Numbered from the stretch's first letter, positions 644 to 22,836 are shown. The stretch: 23,891 nucleotides of DNA from a virus (IMGVR_UViG_3300036981_000058:1-23891); one strand, 5' to 3'. Numbers and translations: made by a program. Notes: generated by a model from the sequence alone, not told the origin.

Positions 644-665
644 GGCGCCTACCGCCCCCGGCGCC
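644..665. terminator. Inverted repeat between convergent genes (possible weak terminator)
   Basis: GGCGCC at 644-649 and again at 660-665 can pair across a 10-base loop. The hairpin sits where the + strand operon and the long minus-strand operon meet and covers the stop codon of the minus gene. A hairpin there could end transcription from either side. No T tract follows on either strand, so it does not meet the usual rule for an intrinsic terminator. It may be chance in GC-rich DNA. Confidence 0.25.
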
Positions 666-2325
666 TCTTCAGTTCGGCCAGCGCCTCGTCTTCGGAATAC
701 AGGTCGCCGAGGGACTGAAGCCCCGTAGCAGCCCGGGACATGCCGGGAGCCACCGGGGCGACGGCCCGGCCAGCAGCAGCAAATGGCCTCGACGCCCGGC
801 CGGCAAGGTGGGCGAGCTCTCCAGAGAAGCGCGGGCTCTCGGCCGCGAGCGCAGCAAGGAACCCCGGGTGCGTGGCGACAGACAATCCGGCCGTGATCGG
901 AATGGCGGTCGCGTTCTGAATGCCCCGTGGCATCCACGTGTTCAGCGCCTGTCCGGCGATCTGCGGCATCAGGGGAAGACCCCCCTCTCCCGTAAGGGTG
1001 TCAAGATCGCGGACACGCTTCCCGAAGTTCGTGTTGACGTTGTTCCGCAGCACGCTGGTGAGCTTCCGTAGCGTCGAGTCGGTGGATGCCTTGTCGCCGA
1101 GCGATAGGCTCTTCGTCAGGTCGTCGATTTTCGCCGAGGCCGCCCCCCAGTCGTCCATCGTCTTCGCGTAGTCCGGTGCGACGGCGCGGATTTCCTTGTT
1201 GATAGCCGCCCGCATCTGGGTGATCGCCCGTCCAGCAGAGGGGGCATTGATCCGGTCGTATGGAAGGTCATTGATAAGCTGCTTCAGGGCGTCCATGCCG
1301 TTGACGGTGTGCGACGCCGGGTCGTTCCGCCACTTGGCAAGGGCAGATTCAATGTCGGCCATCACTGCCTGCTGCGGCTGCCCAACCTTGAACTTCCCGC
1401 GGTGCTGCATCGAGGCGAGAATGTCGCCATAGGCCTTGTCGATTGGCGCGAAGCTGACCGGCGCGTCGGCGCCTTTCCACCCGGCAGAGTTGGTCTGGTA
1501 CTCGGCCGCACGTGCCTGCCGGATGTTGTCCAGATTCTCACGGGCGACGGCGACGATCTCATCCGGCCGCGCCTCTCCTCGCATGTTCGACCGGAAGGAC
1601 TTCCCGGCGTCTCCGCCCTCTTGCCCGGCCTGATAGGCGATCTTCAGCGCATCGCCGCCGGCGCCGCTCAGGTTCCCGGCGATGGTGGCGCCGACGTTGC
1701 CGAGCGTGTTCGCAGTTCCGGCCACGCCCTTCGCGGCAAGATTGACCGGATCGGTGAATGCCGCGGCGCGGGAAAGGGTCGACGCAACTGACCCAGCCTT
1801 CGGGGCGATCATCGCGCCACCGGTCGCCAGCGTCGAGACGTCGGAAAGAGCGCCGACCGGATCGCGTCCGATCGTGTTCAGGATGTTCTGGCCGCCGCCG
1901 TACCGCTGGCTCAGATACTGCCCGGCAGCACTGCCCACCGCCTCGCGCCGCGCAAGCTCCTCCGGGGTCTCGGGAGACGCCTTGTCGAGGAACTTCAGCA
2001 GATCGGGCGATGCCATCTTGATCGCGTTCCGAATACCTCCCCCGGCGACGTCCCGCAGACCCTTCGCGGTCTCGACCGGGTTGGTCACTGCCTGCCAGAT
2101 GTCGCCGGCGAAATTTGCGGCGCTCTGGGGCGCGTTTCGGATCGCGGCCATCGGTACATCACCCAGAGACAGATCGGGCGCTGTAGGGGCTTGCATGGGG
2201 CTTGCTGGGGCTTTCTGGCCTGTGTTCGCCTGAGCGTAGGCAAGAACCTGTTCCTGAGTCGCGCCTTCGGGGGCGTCGACTTCCCATTCCTTGCCGTCGG
2301 GCGAGGTGATGATGTAGGTCGGCAT
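649..2325 (-). CDS. Internal virion / DNA-ejection-type protein (558 aa)
   Basis: Start ATG 2325 follows the previous stop by one base, with AAGGGA upstream. A frame extending to 2358 would run into the previous gene. The N-terminal ~35 residues (MPTYIITSPDGKEWEVDAP, then GATQEQVLAYAQ) match a short module found at the start of many phage internal virion and ejection proteins. The middle is helical, with Ala/Gly-rich segments (for example STLATGGAMIAPKAGSVAS) that could insert in membranes, and the C terminus is basic (LKRRRGR). It is the last gene of the late operon and follows the transglycosylase gene. P22- and T7-type phages place injected proteins at this point, so an ejection role is inferred. 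No enzymatic motif is seen. Confidence 0.65.
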   Translation of the reverse strand: MPTYIITSPDGKEWEVDAPEGATQEQVLAYAQANTGQKAPASPMQAPTAPDLSLGDVPMAAIRNAPQSAANFAGDIWQAVTNPVETAKGLRDVAGGGIRNAIKMASPDLLKFLDKASPETPEELARREAVGSAAGQYLSQRYGGGQNILNTIGRDPVGALSDVSTLATGGAMIAPKAGSVASTLSRAAAFTDPVNLAAKGVAGTANTLGNVGATIAGNLSGAGGDALKIAYQAGQEGGDAGKSFRSNMRGEARPDEIVAVARENLDNIRQARAAEYQTNSAGWKGADAPVSFAPIDKAYGDILASMQHRGKFKVGQPQQAVMADIESALAKWRNDPASHTVNGMDALKQLINDLPYDRINAPSAGRAITQMRAAINKEIRAVAPDYAKTMDDWGAASAKIDDLTKSLSLGDKASTDSTLRKLTSVLRNNVNTNFGKRVRDLDTLTGEGGLPLMPQIAGQALNTWMPRGIQNATAIPITAGLSVATHPGFLAALAAESPRFSGELAHLAGRASRPFAAAGRAVAPVAPGMSRAATGLQSLGDLYSEDEALAELKRRRGR

Positions 2326-2326
2326 G

Positions 2327-3859
2327 TCAGTTTCCCTTCGGACGGATGCCCCACCCACCGCCGGCCGCTGCCGGCGCGGCAGGTTGCACGAACGGCGTCG
2401 CGTAGGGGTTCGGAACCTTCACGCCGGCCGCTGCCCGGGCCTTGCCCGCGGCGATAACTTCCTTCAGGTCGGCAAGGGCTTGACGGTGCGCCGCCGGGCT
2501 CTGCTTCAGGCTCAGGGAGGTGATCGCGTTCGTCGCCTTCTGGCCTTCGATTTCCGTAATCGCACCACCACCGCGAAGCGACTCGAACGCCTGCAAGAAC
2601 GCCGTTCCGGTGACTTGGCCGAGCTTGGATTCATAGTCGGCCGCGGCGCTGCCCGGGATGGTGGGGAGGAGCGATGTCAGGCCGACGGCCTTGTCCAGCC
2701 CCGGGTGGGTCAGGGCGGAGTCAATTACCGCCGTTGCTGCATCGGCCTTCGCGATAGCCGCCGGCGCATTGATCGCGCTCTGGGCGTTCGCCTTGCCGAC
2801 CTCGGTCGCGGCTGCCTTCTGCTCGGACACTTGGCCCTGAAACTCTGGCAGTTTGGACTCGACCGAGAAGGGCATCCCCTTCGCCGGTTCGACGGTCTTC
2901 GTGCCATCGTTGGCGTACCGAACCACATTGACCGCCCCGGTCTTCGGGTCGCGCTCGTAATGCGGGGTCGTGCCGTAACTGGCCGGGTTCATGGTCTTGA
3001 GCAGGCCGGCGCGAATCTGCATCGCCTTCTCGGGCTCGCCCTTCGCGTCGTAGTAGTCGGCCATGCGATTTGTCTCTTCGATGCTCATGTCCTCCTGCTG
3101 GAGCTTGCGCTCGGCGAGACGGGACCGGGCCTGCGATTCCTTGCGCTTCTGCTGGAGCTCCCACAGTTCGTTCTCGGCCTGCTGGCGATTGTGGACGGCG
3201 TTGTTGGCGGCCATCACGCCCATGCCCAGAGGCCTGCCCCAGTCTGTCCCAGAGGCGGCCATGATCGCGGCGCCCATCTGGGTCAGCGGGTTGGTCATCA
3301 TCTTCTCGTACATGTTCATCTCGCGCTGCGGGGGCATTTCCGGCTCGGCGTACTGCGGTTGCTGCTGCCGCCGCATCTGCGCCATGCGGGCCACATAGTC
3401 CATGTACTCGCGGCGCTTCTGCTCTTCGTCAAGGGCTGACAGGTTGATGTCTGCGGGCATTGCGTTCTCCTTCGGTGCTTCGATGTTCTGCGGGTCCAGC
3501 CGTGCGCGTACCTGCTGGGCGTACTGGGCAGTCGTTGGATGGCCCTTCGGGGCTTGGCCGCGGCCGTAGTATGCACCGGTGCGGTCCTCCAGAGTCTGCC
3601 CGCCCTTCGCATACAGGCTCGACGCGAAGTCAGCCTGTTCCTTCAGCGACCCGGCCGCGGGGAACCCCGGGTGATAGTAGGGAACCACCTGAAACGGCCC
3701 CAAAGCATTTCCGCGCCCGCGAGAGAGCGCCGGCCCCTTGATATTCGGATCGAGCGCCCCACCTGATTCCTGTTTCCAGATCGAGCGGAACTCGCCCGGC
3801 AGCAGGCCCAGTGCACTTTCGCGCTCGGCCAGATAGGCTTCGAGCTCTTCGCGTGTCAT
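2327..3859 (-). CDS. Virion-associated lytic transglycosylase (SLT-like), ejection protein (510 aa)
   Basis: Residues about 1-121 look like a soluble lytic transglycosylase domain, which cleaves the glycan strands of peptidoglycan. The candidate catalytic Glu is E31 in WKQESGG, followed by the G-x-x-Q-type element ALGPFQVVP (54-59) and AYYGRG (about 96-101). The remaining ~390 residues carry no enzyme motif. They are Gln/Arg-rich and helical around 150-260, then Ala-rich. This N-terminal enzyme plus long helical tail is typical of injected virion proteins that open the cell wall during DNA entry, as with T7 gp16. The start ATG 3859 overlaps the upstream stop by four bases. Canonical ES is present, but whether it is active is not shown. 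Confidence 0.75.
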   Translation of the reverse strand: MTREELEAYLAERESALGLLPGEFRSIWKQESGGALDPNIKGPALSRGRGNALGPFQVVPYYHPGFPAAGSLKEQADFASSLYAKGGQTLEDRTGAYYGRGQAPKGHPTTAQYAQQVRARLDPQNIEAPKENAMPADINLSALDEEQKRREYMDYVARMAQMRRQQQPQYAEPEMPPQREMNMYEKMMTNPLTQMGAAIMAASGTDWGRPLGMGVMAANNAVHNRQQAENELWELQQKRKESQARSRLAERKLQQEDMSIEETNRMADYYDAKGEPEKAMQIRAGLLKTMNPASYGTTPHYERDPKTGAVNVVRYANDGTKTVEPAKGMPFSVESKLPEFQGQVSEQKAAATEVGKANAQSAINAPAAIAKADAATAVIDSALTHPGLDKAVGLTSLLPTIPGSAAADYESKLGQVTGTAFLQAFESLRGGGAITEIEGQKATNAITSLSLKQSPAAHRQALADLKEVIAAGKARAAAGVKVPNPYATPFVQPAAPAAAGGGWGIRPKGN

Positions 3860-14243: not shown

Positions 14244-14795
14244 TCACGTGAATGAATTGACCGGATCGACGCTGATAATCAGCGCCGCGCTCCGCAGCGT
14301 GACAGAGACGCCAGCGACCTCGGCCGTAATGTAGATCGAGTAGATCGCCGCCGGATCGGCGTAGTCGATTGCTGTCAGAGCAACCGCAATAGGGTTTCCG
14401 GCGCCCGCCCCGTTGCCGGTGATCCGCCATGCGGTAGGGGAGCCGTTCTTGTACAGGGTGAAGGTCAGAAACCGCCCCGTCGCGCACTCGAAATCGGTCG
14501 TGAAGTTGATGGTGGAAGTCCCGCGCTCGGCCCGCGTGATCTCGCCGTTCACGAAGCTGCTCGATGTCTGGTTCGCGTCCGAGTCTGACTGGGCAGCCCA
14601 GAGCATCTTGACCGGGGTTGTGCCGACTGTCTGCACACGGTCCGGGTTTTGTGTCAGCACCCCGTAGGCCGGCCTGATCGCGTTCAGGAACTCCAGCAGG
14701 TACTCGCGGACCTTTGCCGGGGTGATGAATTGGGTCGTGTTGTCCGGGAAGAACACCCCCAGATCGTTCTGAAGCTCGACAAAGCTCTTTCTCAT
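14244..14795 (-). CDS. Virion-type protein of unknown function (183 aa)
   Basis: Start ATG 14795 overlaps the upstream stop by four bases. The N terminus is helical (MRKSFVELQNDLGVFFPDN, then TPAKVREYLLEFLNAI). The rest is beta-rich, with GTSTINFTTDFEC, RFLTFTLYKNG and YSIYITAEVAGVSVTL. That arrangement fits a minor virion protein with a small beta-sandwich, perhaps a fibre-attachment or baseplate part. No family motif is recognised. It sits between the PAPS-reductase-like gene and the HxH fibre. Confidence 0.6.
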   Translation of the reverse strand: MRKSFVELQNDLGVFFPDNTTQFITPAKVREYLLEFLNAIRPAYGVLTQNPDRVQTVGTTPVKMLWAAQSDSDANQTSSSFVNGEITRAERGTSTINFTTDFECATGRFLTFTLYKNGSPTAWRITGNGAGAGNPIAVALTAIDYADPAAIYSIYITAEVAGVSVTLRSAALIISVDPVNSFT

Positions 14796-15337
14796 GCCGC
14801 TGCCTTCCAAAGGTCTTTCGTCCGGCCGCCGCAGGCCTCCTCGACCGGACAGGTGGCGCAGTCCGGCATCCCGACTGAGCCGTTGCGGTAGGCGTCAGGG
14901 AGCATCGGCCCAAGATAGTCCTCGACGTCCTTGTCCGACCAGTGCCACAGGGGGAAGGTGTAAAGCATCCCCTCGACCACTTCGCCGGGATAGACGACAT
15001 GGATGTGCGGGTCGCATGCCTTCGAGCCGCGGATAACCTGCTTGAACCCCATTTCATGCAGGGCGGTGTTCATCGGCATCCAGATGTTCTCGTTGCAACA
15101 CCGGGTCCAGTCCCTGCCCGTGGGGTCGCCGTGCTTGGCGCGATACCCGAGAGAGTCTGCCTTGATCGTCTTGAAGTGCGGAACGGACAATCTCAGCTTC
15201 TCGATCATCATCCGGGCCGACAGGGGCAGATCGCCCGAGTCCACGTGAATGACGGTCAGGAACGGCCACAGGGCTCGCATGTGCATCAGCAGAGCCAGCG
15301 AGTCCTTGCCGCCGGAGAACTGGAGGGCGGTCCTCAT
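14792..15337 (-). CDS. Phage PAPS-reductase-family protein with [4Fe-4S]-type Cys pattern (181 aa)
   Basis: The N-terminal PP-loop SGGKDS (residues 8-13) binds ATP-like nucleotides, followed by IHVDSGDLPLS, both standard for the PAPS reductase / ATP sulphurylase-like superfamily. Cys occur as a pair at 80-81 (WTRCCNEN) and as CATC at 160-163, with another at 169. A CC-X(about 80)-CxxC layout holds a [4Fe-4S] cluster in APS reductases and in the DNA-sulphur-modification protein DndC. The C-terminal catalytic ECG(I/L)H of PAPS reductase is absent. A sulphur-transfer or nucleotide role is therefore possible but unproven. It is embedded in the tail operon by ATGA overlaps at both ends. Confidence 0.75.
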   Translation of the reverse strand: MRTALQFSGGKDSLALLMHMRALWPFLTVIHVDSGDLPLSARMMIEKLRLSVPHFKTIKADSLGYRAKHGDPTGRDWTRCCNENIWMPMNTALHEMGFKQVIRGSKACDPHIHVVYPGEVVEGMLYTFPLWHWSDKDVEDYLGPMLPDAYRNGSVGMPDCATCPVEEACGGRTKDLWKAAA

Positions 15338-16991: not shown

Positions 16992-18023
16992 TCAGGCCGT
17001 GACGGCGAGGGTCGGGTCGATGTCGGCAATGACGCCGTGGGCTGCTTCGTTGTTCACGATCAGCGTCCAGTCAACAGCCATCTGGCGGTTGTCGGCGAGG
17101 CCGGTCTTGGCGAGCGGTTCCACACGGTAGCCGTGCAGGAAGCCGAGCGACAAGTAGGCCGGGTCGATGATGTAGACGTTGGCGCAATCGCCGTCGTCGG
17201 CCGCGTACAGTTGCTGCAAGCGGTTGTCCACCAGTTCGAGCGTGCCGAAGTCGGTCACAAACACGTTGACCGATCCCAGAGCGGTAGCCTTTTCCGAGCT
17301 CTTGCCCTGATCGGACGTGAGGGTTGCCACACGCGCCGAAGAGGTGAACAGGTACTCGGAGAAGCCGCGAATGACACCGGGAACGGACATCAGGACGGAC
17401 GGATCGCCGCCTTCCTGATACACGCTCTGGACGATGTCGCGCACGGTCTTTTCGGACAGCGCACGCTTCGCACCAACGGCCGGGGCCGCCACGATGCCGG
17501 TCGAGAAGCCACCATCGGCGCCAGTGGTGCCGCGGTTGGTCGAGGTCGTCAGCCAAGCACCCAGACCACCGGACTTGCCGGCGTTGGTGTTGCCGTCATC
17601 AGCCAGAGAGGCTTGATGCGTCAGGGCGATAGCCTCGACGTCACGGCGGAGCTCTTGCTGGCGACGCATGACCTGATAGGCCAGTTCGTCCGAGCGACCG
17701 ATAACGTCGACGTTCTGGGCGCGGGTCGAGACGCGAACCACCTTGACCGAAATCTGGCAGTGGTTGCCGACGCGGGCGCCGACGACGGTGTTGTTCCCGG
17801 ACTGGTCGGAACCGTCAACCACGGCGTTCGTGATGTTCGGCGCGGCCAGCTTGTCAATCGTCCATTCCTTGTAGGGATTGTCCGACGTGTCCGAGCCGAT
17901 GCGGTCGGTTAGGGGGAGCGGGATGCGACTGATGTCGAAAATGCGCTCCATGACGTCCTCACGGATGAGGCCTTTGTAATCGACGGCTTTCAGGTCTGCT
18001 GCGTCGAGGTTTGCTGTGGACAT
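16992..18023 (-). CDS. Major capsid protein, SU10/DUF5309 family (343 aa)
   Basis: The family is recognised from MERIFDISRIPLPLTDRIGS, NPYKEWTIDKLAAPN, the N-loop region with RVGNHCQISVKVVRVSTRA, and VIGRSDELAYQVMRRQQELR followed by RDVEAIALTHQAS. The C-terminal part has VFVTDFGTLELVDNRL and VEPLAKTGLADNRQM, also typical. Family members adopt the HK97 fold and form the icosahedral shell. Its gene follows the scaffold gene, has AGGAGG just upstream of ATG 18023, and is followed by an intrinsic terminator, all consistent with high expression. No cleaved delta domain is evident. Confidence 0.85.
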   Translation of the reverse strand: MSTANLDAADLKAVDYKGLIREDVMERIFDISRIPLPLTDRIGSDTSDNPYKEWTIDKLAAPNITNAVVDGSDQSGNNTVVGARVGNHCQISVKVVRVSTRAQNVDVIGRSDELAYQVMRRQQELRRDVEAIALTHQASLADDGNTNAGKSGGLGAWLTTSTNRGTTGADGGFSTGIVAAPAVGAKRALSEKTVRDIVQSVYQEGGDPSVLMSVPGVIRGFSEYLFTSSARVATLTSDQGKSSEKATALGSVNVFVTDFGTLELVDNRLQQLYAADDGDCANVYIIDPAYLSLGFLHGYRVEPLAKTGLADNRQMAVDWTLIVNNEAAHGVIADIDPTLAVTA

Positions 18024-18032
18024 GGTGTCCTC

Positions 18033-19082
18033 CTATCGAGAATTGAGTAGTGCCTGAATCGCAGCGACTTGATCGCCGCGCTTCTGCGTGGTTTTGGCTC
18101 TCTGCACCAAGTTCTCCGTCTTCCGCACTGCAACGGGGGCAACTTTGCGGTTCCCGGGCTGGACTACCGGCTTGGGTGCTTTCCGCACCTTCTGCACGGC
18201 GCCCTGAACGGAAGCGATGTGCTGATACCACCGGAGTGCCATCAGTGCCACCACCCGCGCCCGAGCATCGACGATGGACGCCAGTTCCTGCGGGGCAAAT
18301 CCGACCTTTTCCATCAGGAACCCGTCGAGCTCTTGGGCTTCCTTCTGGGCAACCGCCGGGTTGCGCCACTCAGGCACCGCGGAAAGAAACTTCTCGTTGT
18401 TCTCCGCCACCAGTTGCTGCATCACTTGCTGCTGCATCACGGCCCGTTGCTCCTGCACGCGCTTCAGGTCATCCTTCGCGCCCGCATATTCAACCGCCAT
18501 CTGCTGCTGCATGAATGCCGCCCGGCCCGGGTCAGTCTGAGAAAGCCCTTCCCAATCCACCGCGCTGTACCGCTCCTGAGCCGCTGCGATACGGCCCATT
18601 GCGTCACGCTCTTCCTGCGAAATCTGGTTCTGGCCCGTGAGAATCTGCTGCTCCGCTTGGCGAAGCCGCTGGTACTCCTGAGTCAGATTTTCCCTTGCTG
18701 CATTGATCTCGGCGCGTTCGCGAGAAGCCATCTGCAAGGCATCCTTCATCTGGCCGATAGGAATCTCTTCCCCCGTATCCAGCCTGACAGACAGCCCGTA
18801 AATGTCCTCCGGCGTCCAACCGGCAGCCTTAGCGAACTCGGTCAGGGTGCGAATCTCTCCGCCTTGCTCCCCGCCAACTTCCGCCTCTTCTGCCTGCGCT
18901 TCGATCCCGTCCTCGACCGCGTCGTCTTCGTGGCTCTCGCCCGACGCTATCTGCTCCGGCTCTTCGGTGACTTCCTCGACCGCCGCTTCATCTCTGACCG
19001 GCTCGTCGGTGCTGCCACCACTGAGCAAGTTCGACACTGCCGATACCTGCTCCTGAACCCCTCTCGGTTGGTTCGTTTCCAT
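18033..19082 (-). CDS. Capsid scaffolding protein (349 aa)
   Basis: The protein has the typical scaffold layout. An acidic, disordered N terminus is rich in Glu and Asp (residues about 25-75, for example EVTEEPEQIASGESHEDD). A long helical, coiled-coil-like middle follows (REINAARENLTQEYQRL-like heptads, then MQQQMAVEYAGAKDDLKRVQ and QQQVMQQLVAENNEK). The C terminus is basic and probably binds the capsid protein (KVRKAPKPVVQPGNRK to the end). It lies directly upstream of the capsid gene, as in P22-type phages. It has no protease motif, so it probably exits or is recycled rather than self-digested. Confidence 0.75.
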   Translation of the reverse strand: METNQPRGVQEQVSAVSNLLSGGSTDEPVRDEAAVEEVTEEPEQIASGESHEDDAVEDGIEAQAEEAEVGGEQGGEIRTLTEFAKAAGWTPEDIYGLSVRLDTGEEIPIGQMKDALQMASRERAEINAARENLTQEYQRLRQAEQQILTGQNQISQEERDAMGRIAAAQERYSAVDWEGLSQTDPGRAAFMQQQMAVEYAGAKDDLKRVQEQRAVMQQQVMQQLVAENNEKFLSAVPEWRNPAVAQKEAQELDGFLMEKVGFAPQELASIVDARARVVALMALRWYQHIASVQGAVQKVRKAPKPVVQPGNRKVAPVAVRKTENLVQRAKTTQKRGDQVAAIQALLNSR

Positions 19083-19085
19083 ATC

Positions 19086-19298
19086 TTACACCCTTCCATT
19101 TATGCGCGTCTCCGCGCTTTTCGTCAATCGGCGTTCGAGCTCGGTTCTCACCTGACCCAGCGCCCACACTCGCATGGCGACGCCACGCAATTCATTCCCC
19201 GCAGGGTCGGCCCGGCGGAACTGGTTGAACAGATCGGCTTCGATTTCTCGGAATACGTCATCGAAAATCTTGGAGTCAAGAATCTCCTGCGCCGTCAT
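19086..19298 (-). CDS. Small conserved phage protein between portal region and scaffold (70 aa)
   Basis: The chain (MTAQEILDSKIFDDVFREIE, then ADLFNQFRRADPAG, then RVWALGQVRTELERRL) is all-helical and matches the pattern of a short protein encoded near portal genes in many phages, of unknown role. Its start shares one base with the previous stop (TGATG). It ends three bases before the scaffold start. Confidence 0.65.
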   Translation of the reverse strand: MTAQEILDSKIFDDVFREIEADLFNQFRRADPAGNELRGVAMRVWALGQVRTELERRLTKSAETRINGRV

Positions 19299-21382
19299 CA
19301 GTCGTAACTCCCCTCGCCGCCGCCGGCGTAGCCCAGACCAAGCATCCCAAGCACCGCGGCCGGAACGATACCCTGCTCAACCAGCTTCTTCAGGGCAGGC
19401 AGGCCGCCAGAGCCGAGCGCCTCCATCATCGGGGCGTAGTACGGGGCGGAACGAAGCCCGAGCTTCTCGGCCTGCGCCGTGACCGTGTCGAGCAATTCCT
19501 GAGCGTACCCGCCCTGCATGGTCTGGTTGAAGTTCTCGACCATCTTCGGGCCGCCCGCCTCGATCTCGGAAATGAACGGCTTCGAGGACCACCTTTCGCT
19601 CGGAACCTCGGGGAGAATCCCACCCGAGTTGTTCAGCCAGCGCAAATCGCCACCAGTGGCACCAGCGTGCGCCTGTAGCGCGGCCCGAAGCTCCGGCGCG
19701 AAGATGTCTTTGGTCTGACCCTCGTCGCCGAACTGAAGCCCGCGGACGCCCCTTGAATCGACGATAGGAACATGCACGCCGAGAGAGGCGAGACGCTGGT
19801 TTGCCCGAGAAAGATCATCACCCTGCAATGCGCCGCCGGGATATTCGATCCTGAATGCGTTCGACTGATTTGCCGGAGCCCCACCACGATTCAGCGACGT
19901 CAGGTAGTTGTAGGCCGACTGATCCTGAACGCCGACAAGCCCATGCGCCCCCGCAATGGAGCGGACAACCTGCTCGCTCGCCGGGTCCATCGCCTGCTCG
20001 GCAAGCGTCGTCGGGTTTGACATCTTGCCAACGCCGACCAGCGAGGCATATCCCGGGTTCGTGGCGCCCTCGTAGACGCCCACGTTGGGCAAGGACGTGT
20101 CAGTCAGCGCCCCCATGCCCCGAGCCAGCCGGTCAATCCCCTGCGGGCCTGTGTTCACGTCCTCCAGCGCCTGAGAAAATCCCTGACGAACCTCGTAGGG
20201 CATGCTGCCCAGTTCCTCAAGGTGTCCAGACCTCGTGCTCGGCACCCACTCGCGGGTGATCTGGGCCTGATACTCGGGGGCAAAGTAGCCGTAATGCTGC
20301 GCCGTCTCTCCGACCTGCCGGCCTTCCTTCTTGGCCTTCTGCGAAATCCACGCGGCAGCCTGTGCGCGGTAGGGATTCCAGTCGGTAGCGCCACCCAGCG
20401 CCATGTTGTTCGCCTTGCCAGAGACATAATCCGCCTGCTCGTCAAGGAACCTGTGCGCCGCCGGAGGCACGCCCTTTTTCCAGTCTTCTCCGGTCTTCGG
20501 GTCTTTGATGTCCCACGCCCGCATGTCGTGAATGTCGTGCGTCGGGCGGCTTGCAAACTCCTTGCCGCGCCAATCGACCGACAGGCCGGCAGAGAATGGC
20601 CCGCGCTTCAGCCCGGCCGCGGACGCCTCGGGGTCAGTGAAGGTGCGGGTGATCTCCTTGCCCATGTTGTTCGGGAACTTGCCGGAGTGGATCGGCTGGC
20701 CCAGAAGATGCTGGTTCCACGCCTTGTTGGTGTACATCAGGTTCGGAGGTACTGCCGTGCTTGAAGACGTCGTTGCAAGCGCGTTCGCGACCTTGTCAGA
20801 CTCTGCCGGCACCCCACCGGTCCAGCGATTGATCGCGGCCGACGACTCGTCGTACCAATGGCGGCCGGGCGTACCCGCCTCCATGTGGGCCATGTAGTTC
20901 GAGCGCATCCTGCCCAGTTGGGCCGGGGTGATGTGTCCGAGCGCACCGGTGGCGTCATAGACCCGCTTGCCCTCTTCGGTGGTCTTCAGCTTGTTGCCGC
21001 GTCCCTGCATAGGGACTTCCACCGAGCGAGACGCAAGCCCCTCCTGACCAACCGCGGTCTTCACCGGGGCGACTGCCTTGCGTACCGAGTCGTCAATCAC
21101 GCCGCGGGTCATTCCGGCCATGCCGGCGAACATCCCGGCGCCAGCGCCCATCCCGGCCAGCAGCTTCCCGCCAGCCATGATCGGCTTCGAGATTCCAGAA
21201 CCGATCAGGTCGTCAGGGGCGAACATCGGCGCCTCCAGCGCATGACCGCCGGGGCGCTGGTACTCCGGCTGCCACTCCGGCTCTGACGGACGCGACATCA
21301 CGGACCCCTTCAGGCGTGCCTGATCCTGCTGCCTCTTGCGCCACGCCTTAAGCTCAAACAGATCGCGATAACCGATTGCCAT
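19298..21382 (-). CDS. Large polyvalent-type virion protein with DUF7178-like region (694 aa)
   Basis: The N-terminal ~65 residues are disordered and basic. Residues about 66-95 are a Gly/Ala/Met-rich hydrophobic stretch (ISKPIMAGGKLLAGMGAGAG onward) and the last ~20 residues are hydrophobic again. Residues about 150-245 contain RSNYMAHMEAG, GRHWYDESSAAINRW, ANALATTSSSTAVPPNL and LLGQPIHSGKFPNNM. These resemble the DUF7178 domain of phage and plasmid polyvalent proteins, which are large proteins thought to be injected with DNA. No known enzyme motif is visible. It lies between portal and scaffold, an unusual place for so large a protein. It shares one base with the upstream stop. Confidence 0.6.
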   Translation of the reverse strand: MAIGYRDLFELKAWRKRQQDQARLKGSVMSRPSEPEWQPEYQRPGGHALEAPMFAPDDLIGSGISKPIMAGGKLLAGMGAGAGMFAGMAGMTRGVIDDSVRKAVAPVKTAVGQEGLASRSVEVPMQGRGNKLKTTEEGKRVYDATGALGHITPAQLGRMRSNYMAHMEAGTPGRHWYDESSAAINRWTGGVPAESDKVANALATTSSSTAVPPNLMYTNKAWNQHLLGQPIHSGKFPNNMGKEITRTFTDPEASAAGLKRGPFSAGLSVDWRGKEFASRPTHDIHDMRAWDIKDPKTGEDWKKGVPPAAHRFLDEQADYVSGKANNMALGGATDWNPYRAQAAAWISQKAKKEGRQVGETAQHYGYFAPEYQAQITREWVPSTRSGHLEELGSMPYEVRQGFSQALEDVNTGPQGIDRLARGMGALTDTSLPNVGVYEGATNPGYASLVGVGKMSNPTTLAEQAMDPASEQVVRSIAGAHGLVGVQDQSAYNYLTSLNRGGAPANQSNAFRIEYPGGALQGDDLSRANQRLASLGVHVPIVDSRGVRGLQFGDEGQTKDIFAPELRAALQAHAGATGGDLRWLNNSGGILPEVPSERWSSKPFISEIEAGGPKMVENFNQTMQGGYAQELLDTVTAQAEKLGLRSAPYYAPMMEALGSGGLPALKKLVEQGIVPAAVLGMLGLGYAGGGEGSYD

Positions 21383-22686
21383 TACCTTCCCCCAACTTTG
21401 CGAACCCAGTCTTCACTCAGCAAGTCTTTGAACGGCAAACTGGAATGCGTCCATTTCTCGCCACCATACCCACCCAGAGACGGCAGGGCGAAGGGCGGGC
21501 TGTATATGCCGCCGTCCGTGTTCTTCCACAACGTCTGCTCTACCGGGGTCGTGAACTCATCCCCGAAGAAGTTGTTACGCAACCACTCGTCCGACTCGCC
21601 AGCCCGCTTCTGAACTGCGTTCGCCATCTGCTCGCCATACAGCGACCGGTAGGCGTCGTACTCACTCGCCCGTGCATACGCAGCGGGGTTCGCCGACTTC
21701 AGGGCATTGATGGCCTGCCGGACCTGCGTCGGGTCTCGCCCGGCGCCAACGTCGGCCGCGATCTGGTTCCGAAGCCTGCGCTTCTCCTCGAACAGCCGGC
21801 TGAAATTCTCCGGCCCGCCACCCTGCGGCAGCTTCTCGATGTCTTGGATGCCGTGCGTAACCTCGTGAGAGACGACAGGGACCAGCGAGTTCGCGCTCTC
21901 CGCGTCCTTCGTGCCGATCTCGATCAGGTTCTGCGACGGGCTGTGGAAGGCGCCACGGGTGTGCGGATTTATCGACAGGTCCATCTTTCCGATGATCGGA
22001 TAGTTGTCGTACAGCTCCGGGTGGTCAAGGAACTGCGACAGCGGCATGTTCGGCACGTCCTGACGCGGAGGCGTCTTCAGTTGGTTCTCGGCCCTCAGAC
22101 GGCGTTGCAGGTACGGCTCGAACTCGGCATAGGTCATCTTTCCCTCGGCCCGCTGCTGCTTCGCCCACTCAAACGCCCCGTTGGCGTCGTCCACCTCGGC
22201 GCGAAGTTTCGCGAAGTCAGGCAGCCACGGGGCATTGATCCTCGCCCCCTTGTCGGAAAACTCCTGCAACACGGTCCCGGTCGGCATCACGTAGTTCTTC
22301 GGAACGTCGAACCATATCTCCCGCGGGGTGGCGCCCATGCCGGCAAGCCGGGATGCCTCCTGCGCCGCCTTCTCGTTAAATCCCCTCGCGCCTCGGCCCA
22401 TCAGCGTGCCGCCAAGCGCCGGAATGAACGGCAGCACCCCGGCCGCGTTCAGCCCGGCCGACAGGTAGTTGCCCTCCTTGAAGTCGTCCCACGCCAGCTT
22501 CCCGGCGGCAATGTCCGACACGCCGGGCGCGAACGAGTTTGCAATCGCCTCGGTCGCACGGCGGCCGGTCAGTTGCGGGAACGTCTCACTCACCGACTTC
22601 TGCGCCACCGGCGCGTGCTGCGGCATCATCGTGCCGGTGCGCTTGCGCCTCTGGAGCTCGGCGAGAACTGAGGACATGCCGGCCAT
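21382..22686 (-). CDS. Polyvalent-type protein with HExxH metallopeptidase-like domain (434 aa)
   Basis: ATG 22686 has AAGGGG six bases upstream. The N-terminal ~100 residues are a basic tail and a small hydrophobic hairpin (AAGVLPFIPALGGTLMG). From about 120 (PREIWFDVPKNYVM) the sequence follows the LPD23-type large polyvalent protein-associated domain: LSQFLDHPELYDNYP, GAFHSPSQNLIEIG, then the zinc motif HEVTHG at 274-279, and SEYDAYRSLYGEQMANA, where E352 is a candidate third ligand. That makes a gluzincin-like peptidase plausible. The substrate is unknown; a host target after injection is a hypothesis. It lies three bases after the small basic gene. Confidence 0.7.
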   Translation of the reverse strand: MAGMSSVLAELQRRKRTGTMMPQHAPVAQKSVSETFPQLTGRRATEAIANSFAPGVSDIAAGKLAWDDFKEGNYLSAGLNAAGVLPFIPALGGTLMGRGARGFNEKAAQEASRLAGMGATPREIWFDVPKNYVMPTGTVLQEFSDKGARINAPWLPDFAKLRAEVDDANGAFEWAKQQRAEGKMTYAEFEPYLQRRLRAENQLKTPPRQDVPNMPLSQFLDHPELYDNYPIIGKMDLSINPHTRGAFHSPSQNLIEIGTKDAESANSLVPVVSHEVTHGIQDIEKLPQGGGPENFSRLFEEKRRLRNQIAADVGAGRDPTQVRQAINALKSANPAAYARASEYDAYRSLYGEQMANAVQKRAGESDEWLRNNFFGDEFTTPVEQTLWKNTDGGIYSPPFALPSLGGYGGEKWTHSSLPFKDLLSEDWVRKVGGR

Positions 22687-22689
22687 GAT

Positions 22690-22836
22690 CTACCCCTTCG
22701 GTGGTTGTTTGAAGCCCACCTTGCGGAACCTGCGCCCCGTCCGGTAGGCCTCCTTCAGCGTCTCGGCAATGCGCTTGCACTGCTCCTCTGTGCGGCAGCG
22801 CACATTGGCAACCTTCGGCGCCTTGATCGTCTTCAT
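22690..22836 (-). CDS. Small basic protein (48 aa)
   Basis: ATG 22836 overlaps the portal stop by four bases, and TAG 22690 lies three bases before the metallopeptidase start. The chain MKTIKAPKVANVRCRTEEQC onward is basic, helical in the middle (RIAETLKEAYRTGRRF) and has two Cys. A longer frame running to 23391 is antisense to nothing useful and overlaps the portal. Function unknown. Confidence 0.55.
   Translation of the reverse strand: MKTIKAPKVANVRCRTEEQCKRIAETLKEAYRTGRRFRKVGFKQPPKG

What the first reader, a model, noticed from the sequence alone, without database searches (positions are those of the whole stretch)
21382..22686. HExxH metallopeptidase-like polyvalent protein placed between portal and scaffold
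The protein has HEVTHG at 274-279 inside an LPD23-type context (LDHPELYDNYP, GAFHSPSQNLIEIG) and a candidate third ligand E352. Enzymes of this sort are thought to be injected by phages and conjugative elements to act on host proteins. Finding one beside the portal gene of a short-tailed phage suggests a packaged effector.
Basis: partly seen in the sequence, partly recalled or inferred. Interest (0 to 1): 0.7.

Follow-up and report, generated by a model that had tools for sequence, protein, structure and literature searches.

The report
Swappable zinc-protease cargo in phage
A gene inserted between the portal and scaffold genes of a short-tailed-type phage encodes a probable zinc protease of a known phage family, and relatives carry other toxin-like enzymes in the same slot, some behind interchangeable front ends, which suggests a cargo bay for proteins shipped inside the virus particle.

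Summary
The 434-aa gene (21382-22686, minus strand) carries HEVTHG at 274-279 and E352. In an alignment of 44 relatives, H274, E275, H278 and E352 are invariant. 42 of the 44 match Pfam LPD23; the window protein and its closest relative are too diverged to score, but keep that domain's invariant residues at about 103-150. AlphaFold gives a confident zincin-like topology. Solved zincins recur among weak fold matches (ArdC, IrrE, anthrax LF), and the IrrE match puts E352 in register with zinc ligand Glu113. It is therefore very probably a zincin metallopeptidase of the phage polyvalent-protein kind, known in outline (Iyer 2017).

The surroundings are more interesting. The portal-scaffold gap is an accessory slot: nearly empty in 13 relatives, holding zincin, ADP-ribosyltransferase-like or DUF7178-like cargo in others. 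N-terminal modules move between bodies. Module A (~90 aa) heads the window's 694-aa neighbour, an L009 zincin, an L123 HExxxH zincin and an L122 ART-like protein. Between the window and L009 the two cargo genes have exchanged N-termini. This works like T4 internal proteins, where one capsid-targeting leader heads unrelated anti-defence cargo. Packaging, injection and substrate are inferred, not shown.

The parts
21382..22686 (-). Zincin metallopeptidase gene, 434 aa (the finding)
   Evidence: homologues
21850..21867 (-). HEVTHG, residues 274-279, predicted zinc-binding HExxH helix
   Evidence: invariant H, E, H in 44/44; helix 266-284 in the model
21631..21633 (-). E352, predicted third zinc ligand (family motif GE.EAR)
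   Evidence: 44/44 E; helix 350-361; in register with IrrE Glu113
21550..22062 (-). Peptidase domain, residues 209-379
   Evidence: domain model pLDDT 86.9
22237..22380 (-). Diverged LPD23-like region, residues about 103-150
   Evidence: 42/44 relatives hit PF18838; G118, E142, D145 invariant; no Pfam hit on this protein itself
22396..22530 (-). N-terminal module B, residues about 53-97 (DDFKEGNYLSAGLNAAGVLP)
   Evidence: shared with the N-terminus of the L009 694-homologue and with family members L070, L049, L044
22639..22677 (-). Short N-terminal amphipathic helix (VLAELQRRKR), candidate leader
   Evidence: helix 4-16 at low confidence; leave-out motif scan
19298..21382 (-). Second cargo gene, 694 aa, weakly DUF7178-like, overlaps the finding's stop codon
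   Evidence: 57% identity to L009:6544-8736; weak DUF7178; hhalign E 5e-4 over 80 columns to the L010 group
21101..21382 (-). N-terminal module A on the 694-aa gene
19086..19298 (-). 70-aa gene between cargo and scaffold
   Evidence: homologues in L008-L011, L013, L015, L035
22690..22836 (-). 48-aa basic gene between portal and the finding, similar ORF in L009
22833..23891 (-). Portal protein (SU10 type), C-terminal part, truncated by window end
   Evidence: PF23899 E 5e-61
18033..19082 (-). Scaffolding protein
   Evidence: phrog_3927 E 3e-18
16992..18023 (-). Major capsid protein (SU10 type)
   Evidence: PF17236 E 3e-68

Best explanation
The gene encodes a zinc-dependent metallopeptidase (zincin; ligands H274, H278 and E352, general base E275) carried as an accessory cargo protein of the virion. 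It is made late with portal, scaffold and capsid, loaded into the procapsid through its N-terminal part (short amphipathic helix plus a hydrophobic module), ejected with the DNA, and then cleaves a host protein, most plausibly one that would harm the incoming genome. The same slot and the same kind of N-terminus serve other enzyme bodies in relatives. Shown: homology, conserved active-site residues, predicted zincin-like topology, an accessory slot, and shared or exchanged N-terminal modules. Inferred: catalysis, packaging, ejection, host substrate. My estimates: zincin 0.9; virion cargo 0.7; acts on a host protein rather than on phage proteins 0.55.
For: Active-site residues invariant in 44/44. 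LPD23 in 42/44 relatives. Domain model pLDDT 86.9 with strands, HExxH helix, then Glu helix. Foldseek top three are ArdC chains, an antirestriction metalloprotease-domain protein, and VIA-align lists IrrE (Z 5.5, 3.2 A, 84 aligned), SPRTN, LF and BlaR1. The ends of the IrrE alignments (155/124 and 156/125) put model residue 144 (= E352) at Glu113, a zinc ligand, if the last helix is ungapped. The slot is accessory: 13 relatives have a 225-300 bp gap between portal and scaffold, while others hold 2-4 kb of different cargo, including an ART-PolyVal protein in L035. Module A heads a DUF7178-like, two zincin and one ART-like body. N-termini of the two cargo genes are reciprocally exchanged between window and L009 (53% identity over 88 columns, z 32.6; and z 7.5). 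Genes near family members are mainly TerL, portal and scaffold. Iyer 2017 places such proteins in the virion.
Against: No virion proteomics, no activity, no host known. Fold matches to solved zincins are weak (best Foldseek E 0.039; Z below 6). The second Glu of the family motif GE.EAR is Met here (M354), also in L009, so the active site is not typical in every detail. The reciprocal swap rests on two genomes, and its module B half is a short match. The leader-motif comparison is significant only as a top-rank count (hypergeometric 9.5e-6, threshold chosen after looking); the overall rank test is not (p 0.26).
Confidence: 0.6

Rival explanations
1. It is a processing protease for the phage's own proteins: it matures the procapsid, or clips the cargo proteins (itself or the 694-aa neighbour) inside the head before release.
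For: Place between portal and scaffold/capsid is, from general knowledge, the usual site of prohead proteases. Iyer 2017 favours self-processing by these domains, with P1 DdrB as the example. The two cargo genes are adjacent and overlapping.
Against: 13 relatives with the same portal, scaffold and capsid types have no gene of that size in the slot, so assembly does not need it. In other relatives the slot holds ART-like enzymes instead.
Confidence: 0.22
2. The HExxH domain is no longer, or never was, a peptidase: it serves as a packaging or structural module, or catalyses another metal-dependent reaction.
For: In N4 virion RNA polymerase the region with the domain is required for encapsidation and the protein is packaged uncleaved. 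An HExxH-domain alpha-ketoglutarate oxygenase is among the fold matches.
Against: General base and all three predicted ligands are invariant across 44 diverse proteins, which a purely structural role would not require.
Confidence: 0.12
3. It is an intracellular, non-virion protein that merely sits in the late operon, for example acting on host defence during lysis-stage infection.
For: No packaging data; in L018 a family member lies about 10 kb from the portal, after the adaptor gene.
Against: N-terminal modules are shared with other cargo and family members sit by head genes across diverse viruses; F116-group phages carry the domain in proteins annotated as structural or internal virion proteins.
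Confidence: 0.06

Closest known systems
Zincin-like MPTases of phage polyvalent proteins (Iyer et al. 2017, PMC5512222), with Pfam LPD23 (PF18838)
   Same: HExxH plus downstream Glu, three-stranded core, virion-gene context, LPD23 upstream in 42 of 44 relatives.
   Different: A small stand-alone protein, not a giant multidomain one; LPD23 diverged below detection; M354 in place of the second Glu; paired with a second cargo gene and with exchangeable N-termini.
Pseudomonas phage AF gp16 (2213 aa)
   Same: LPD23 plus the same peptidase domain, HEVQHAIQ.
   Different: Embedded in a giant protein that begins with LPD22 and follows genes annotated as internal virion proteins and endolysin.
T-even internal proteins with a capsid-targeting sequence (PMC3012670, PMC12373910)
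   Same: Works alike: a shared N-terminal leader on otherwise unrelated, fast-changing cargo.
   Different: No homology to the T4 leader was tested; cargo here is larger enzymes; packaging is not shown.
ArdC of plasmid R388 (6sna) and IrrE/PprI (3dti)
   Same: Best solved-structure matches; metalloprotease domains, IrrE zinc ligands His82, His86, Glu113.
   Different: Weak scores, no sequence match in PDB; different delivery and context.
DUF6782 (PF20573, putative metallopeptidase)
   Same: 8 of 44 relatives match at E 0.01 or better; in MW202710 the match covers the HExxH region.
   Different: The window protein does not match.

Membership tests
Zincin metallopeptidase superfamily | HExxH in a helix | tested here: met
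   residues 274-278, 44/44 conserved, helix 266-284
Zincin metallopeptidase superfamily | Conserved downstream third ligand on a second helix | tested here: met
   E352 44/44, helix 350-361; that it binds zinc is not shown
Zincin metallopeptidase superfamily | Fold match to solved zincins | tested here: inconclusive
   ArdC, IrrE, SPRTN, LF, BlaR1 among the matches but E 0.039 and Z below 6
Zincin metallopeptidase superfamily | Ligand geometry and zinc binding | not testable with these tools
   model coordinates not exposed; needs structure or metal assay
LPD23-associated phage MPTase family | Homology across LPD23 region and peptidase domain | tested here: met
   tblastn E 7e-5 to phage AF; 45% identity to L009; 44-sequence alignment with shared invariants
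Pfam LPD23 (PF18838) | Model score above cut-off on this protein | tested here: not met
   no hit on P0001 or in the window, though 42 of 44 relatives hit
Pfam DUF6782 | Model score above cut-off on this protein | tested here: not met
   no hit on P0001; 8 of 44 relatives hit
Polyvalent protein | Several conflict domains in one polypeptide | tested here: inconclusive
   LPD23-like plus MPTase only; short
Packaged and ejected phage protein | Presence in the virion and transfer to the host | not testable with these tools
   needs proteomics or injection assay
T4-type capsid-targeting-sequence cargo (as analogue) | Common N-terminal leader on unrelated bodies | tested here: met
   module A on different bodies; L002/L130 share 96 aa at 76% with different bodies; homology to the T4 leader not tested
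Prohead maturation protease | Needed for head assembly in the lineage, hence always present | tested here: not met
   13 relatives lack any gene of that size in the slot; presence elsewhere in their genomes not excluded, as many contigs are partial

The most novel reading that the evidence does not exclude
These phages keep a dedicated cargo slot between portal and scaffold whose proteins share interchangeable N-terminal loading modules (module A with the GGHALEAPM...PDDLIG motif, module B, and a short leader helix). Any enzyme fused behind them, protease, ADP-ribosyltransferase or DUF7178 protein, would be loaded into the capsid and injected: a T4-like capsid-targeting system, evolved in a different phage group, for large toxin-like enzymes.
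Probability: 0.42. Interest if true: 0.72.

Novelty: new variant of a known kind. Interest (0 to 1): 0.5.

Why it matters
The enzyme itself extends a known class. What would be new is a readable loading code: if modules A and B alone carry proteins into the capsid, unknown injected effectors could be recognised by their N-termini across phages outside the T4 group, and the anti-host roles of these proteases and ART-like proteins would become directly testable. It also shows that stand-alone members of the LPD23-MPTase family are common beside head genes, while no held paper was found that discusses this domain under the names LPD23 or DUF6782.

Tried and rejected
Direct family searches with the window protein (Pfam, PHROGs, NCBIfam, PADLOC, PDB sequences) gave nothing useful. 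A single-sequence scan of IMG/VR found no relative; an alignment-based scan found 318 relatives, 80 kept. Fold search with the full model was filled by a helical hairpin (157-207) and was uninformative for the peptidase domain, so the domain was folded alone. I considered an essential prohead protease and rejected it because 13 relatives have an almost empty slot. A rank test of the N-terminal leader motif over all gene clusters was not significant (p 0.26), although 4 of the top 5 of 173 clusters were cargo. A genome scan for module A gave one weak, probably unrelated hit in a Bdellovibrionales MAG. The 694-aa gene found no relative in phages or viral contigs when used as query.

Full report
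What was checked. The gene at 21382-22686 (minus strand) is an intact 434-aa ORF with HEVTHG at 274-279 and E352 in YGEQMAN. Shuffling the sequence gives an HExxH in 0.7% of trials, so the motif by itself would be weak. Conservation makes it real. The window lies in a 23,891-base IMG/VR virus record with SU10-type portal, capsid protein and adaptor, a scaffold, and a protein of the family 'released from the phage upon host infection'. From the portal end the order is: portal, a 48-aa basic gene, this gene, a 694-aa gene, a 70-aa gene, scaffold, capsid protein. Several neighbours overlap by a few bases.

Family. The window protein alone hits no library. tblastn finds Pseudomonas phage AF gp16 and an environmental phage, MW202710 (E about 1e-4). 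AF gp16 carries LPD22 and LPD23 at strong scores; the MW202710 protein carries DUF6782, a weak M78 match and weak LPD23. A capsid-protein scan of IMG/VR found 33 related loci. One, L009, has the same gene order with a 45%-identical 441-aa homologue (HEGQH). An alignment-based scan then found 318 relatives, 80 kept. In an alignment of 44 proteins, H274, E275, H278, Q281, G289, Y346, G351, E352, A355 and R361 are invariant, as are G118, E142 and D145 upstream. Of these 44, 42 hit Pfam LPD23 at E 0.01 or better; only the window protein and L009 do not (for the two). The region at about 103-150 is therefore a diverged LPD23, and the quoted LDHPELYDNYP/GAFHSPSQNLIEIG stretch belongs to the peptidase domain. 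The second Glu of the family motif GE.EAR is Met in the window protein and L009, but the first Glu (E352) is universal, which makes E352 the best third ligand.

Structure. The full model has pLDDT 78.8, with most ten-residue blocks from 101 to 300 at 89 or more and lower values around 301-340. The domain alone (209-379) has pLDDT 86.9 and shows three short strands, the HExxH helix, a helical insert, and a helix bearing E352, as Iyer 2017 describes for these domains. Foldseek's first three PDB matches are ArdC chains (best E 0.039), and ZMPSTE24, ADAMTS-5 and anthrax LF also appear. VIA-align gives IrrE at Z 5.5 (3.2 A, 84 aligned), SPRTN, LF, PprI, BlaR1, BepA and Wss1. The scores are modest, so the fold is supported rather than proven. 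The two IrrE alignments end at 156/125 and 155/124; read back without gaps, E352 (model residue 144) falls on IrrE Glu113, which binds zinc together with His82 and His86. Viral-structure matches are 'large polyvalent protein associated domain-containing' proteins. Distances could not be measured.

Surroundings. Across capsid-related loci with both portal and scaffold, 13 have only a 225-300 bp gap with one small ORF, and 12 have gaps of about 0.7 to 4 kb. The contents differ: zincin plus 694-type (window, L009); diverged zincin (HELSGH) plus a 393-aa protein (L020); an 811-aa protein with an ART-PolyVal match (L035); a related 309-331-aa region plus a 73x-aa protein matching DUF7178 (L010, L013, L015); a 602-aa protein (L008); a glycoside-hydrolase-like protein (L038). 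In L019/L021 a zincin of the family sits directly before the portal, and in L018 after the adaptor. Genes next to representative family members in other viruses are mainly terminase, portal and scaffold. The slot is thus accessory and variable, which argues against an essential assembly protease.

N-terminal modules. The window's 694-aa gene begins with about 90 aa (module A) that reappear at 53% identity at the start of the L009 zincin (z 32.6 against shuffles), whereas the window zincin's module B (DDFKEGNYLSAGLNAAGVLP) reappears at the start of the L009 694-homologue (z 7.5; best of 300 shuffles 48 against 66). The two cargo genes have exchanged N-termini. Module B also precedes LPD23 in other family members (L070, L049, L044), so it is probably the older partner of the zincin. 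Module A was found on three further proteins: L122 (327 aa, ART-like by eye, no Pfam hit, after a spanin-like gene), L123 (518 aa, HELGGH zincin of this family at E 4e-10, between terminase and a short downstream ORF that is probably the portal) and L124 (cut by the contig end). A separate example exists in MW202710 and MW202462: 96 aa at 76% identity head a zincin in one and a different, ART-like body (by eye; no Pfam hit) in the other, both upstream of the terminase. A 14-residue leader motif trained on the four window/L009 cargo starts ranks four other cargo proteins highest among the 502 remaining genes; by cluster, 4 of the top 5 of 173 are cargo (hypergeometric 9.5e-6, post hoc), but the overall rank test is not significant (p 0.26).

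Mechanism. The most economical reading is a virion cargo protein: loaded through its N-terminus, ejected with DNA, acting as a zinc protease on a host target. T-even internal proteins are the nearest working model: diverse anti-defence proteins with only the capsid-targeting leader in common. ArdC, the top fold match, is a conjugative-plasmid antirestriction protein with a metalloprotease domain, which makes a defence-related target plausible but not shown. Rivals are processing of phage or cargo proteins, and a non-proteolytic role.

Verdict. The enzyme is a new member of a described class. The accessory slot with exchangeable N-termini is a new variant of the packaged-cargo theme and is the part worth following.

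Noticed in passing
window 22690-22836 (-): 48-aa basic ORF (MKTIKAPKVANVRCRTEEQCKRIAETLKEAY...) between portal and the finding; a similar ORF sits at the same place in L009.
   Followed up: partly
window 19298-21382 (-): 694-aa neighbour with weak DUF7178 similarity and a hydrophobic C-terminus; only one full-length relative (L009) found.
   Followed up: partly
window 649-3859 (-): Two probable ejection proteins; 2327-3859 matches phrog_2534 'released from the phage upon host infection'.
   Followed up: no
window 14792-15337 (-): PAPS-reductase-like gene among the head and tail genes.
   Followed up: no
L036-L039: Capsid protein gene is split into pieces separated by up to about 2.4 kb, as if by inserted elements.
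   Followed up: no
L038:4836-6116: Glycoside-hydrolase-like protein (Pfam GH42, just above cut-off) in the portal-scaffold gap.
   Followed up: no
L074:5721-13064: 2447-aa protein with two copies of the same LPD23-type peptidase domain.
   Followed up: no
L003:3799-10440 (Pseudomonas phage AF gp16): A second HExxH (HELGHYY at residue 1007) follows the family domain in the same protein.
   Followed up: no
L020 and L123: Family members with HExxxH instead of HExxH (HELSGH, HELGGH), the variant described by Iyer 2017.
   Followed up: partly
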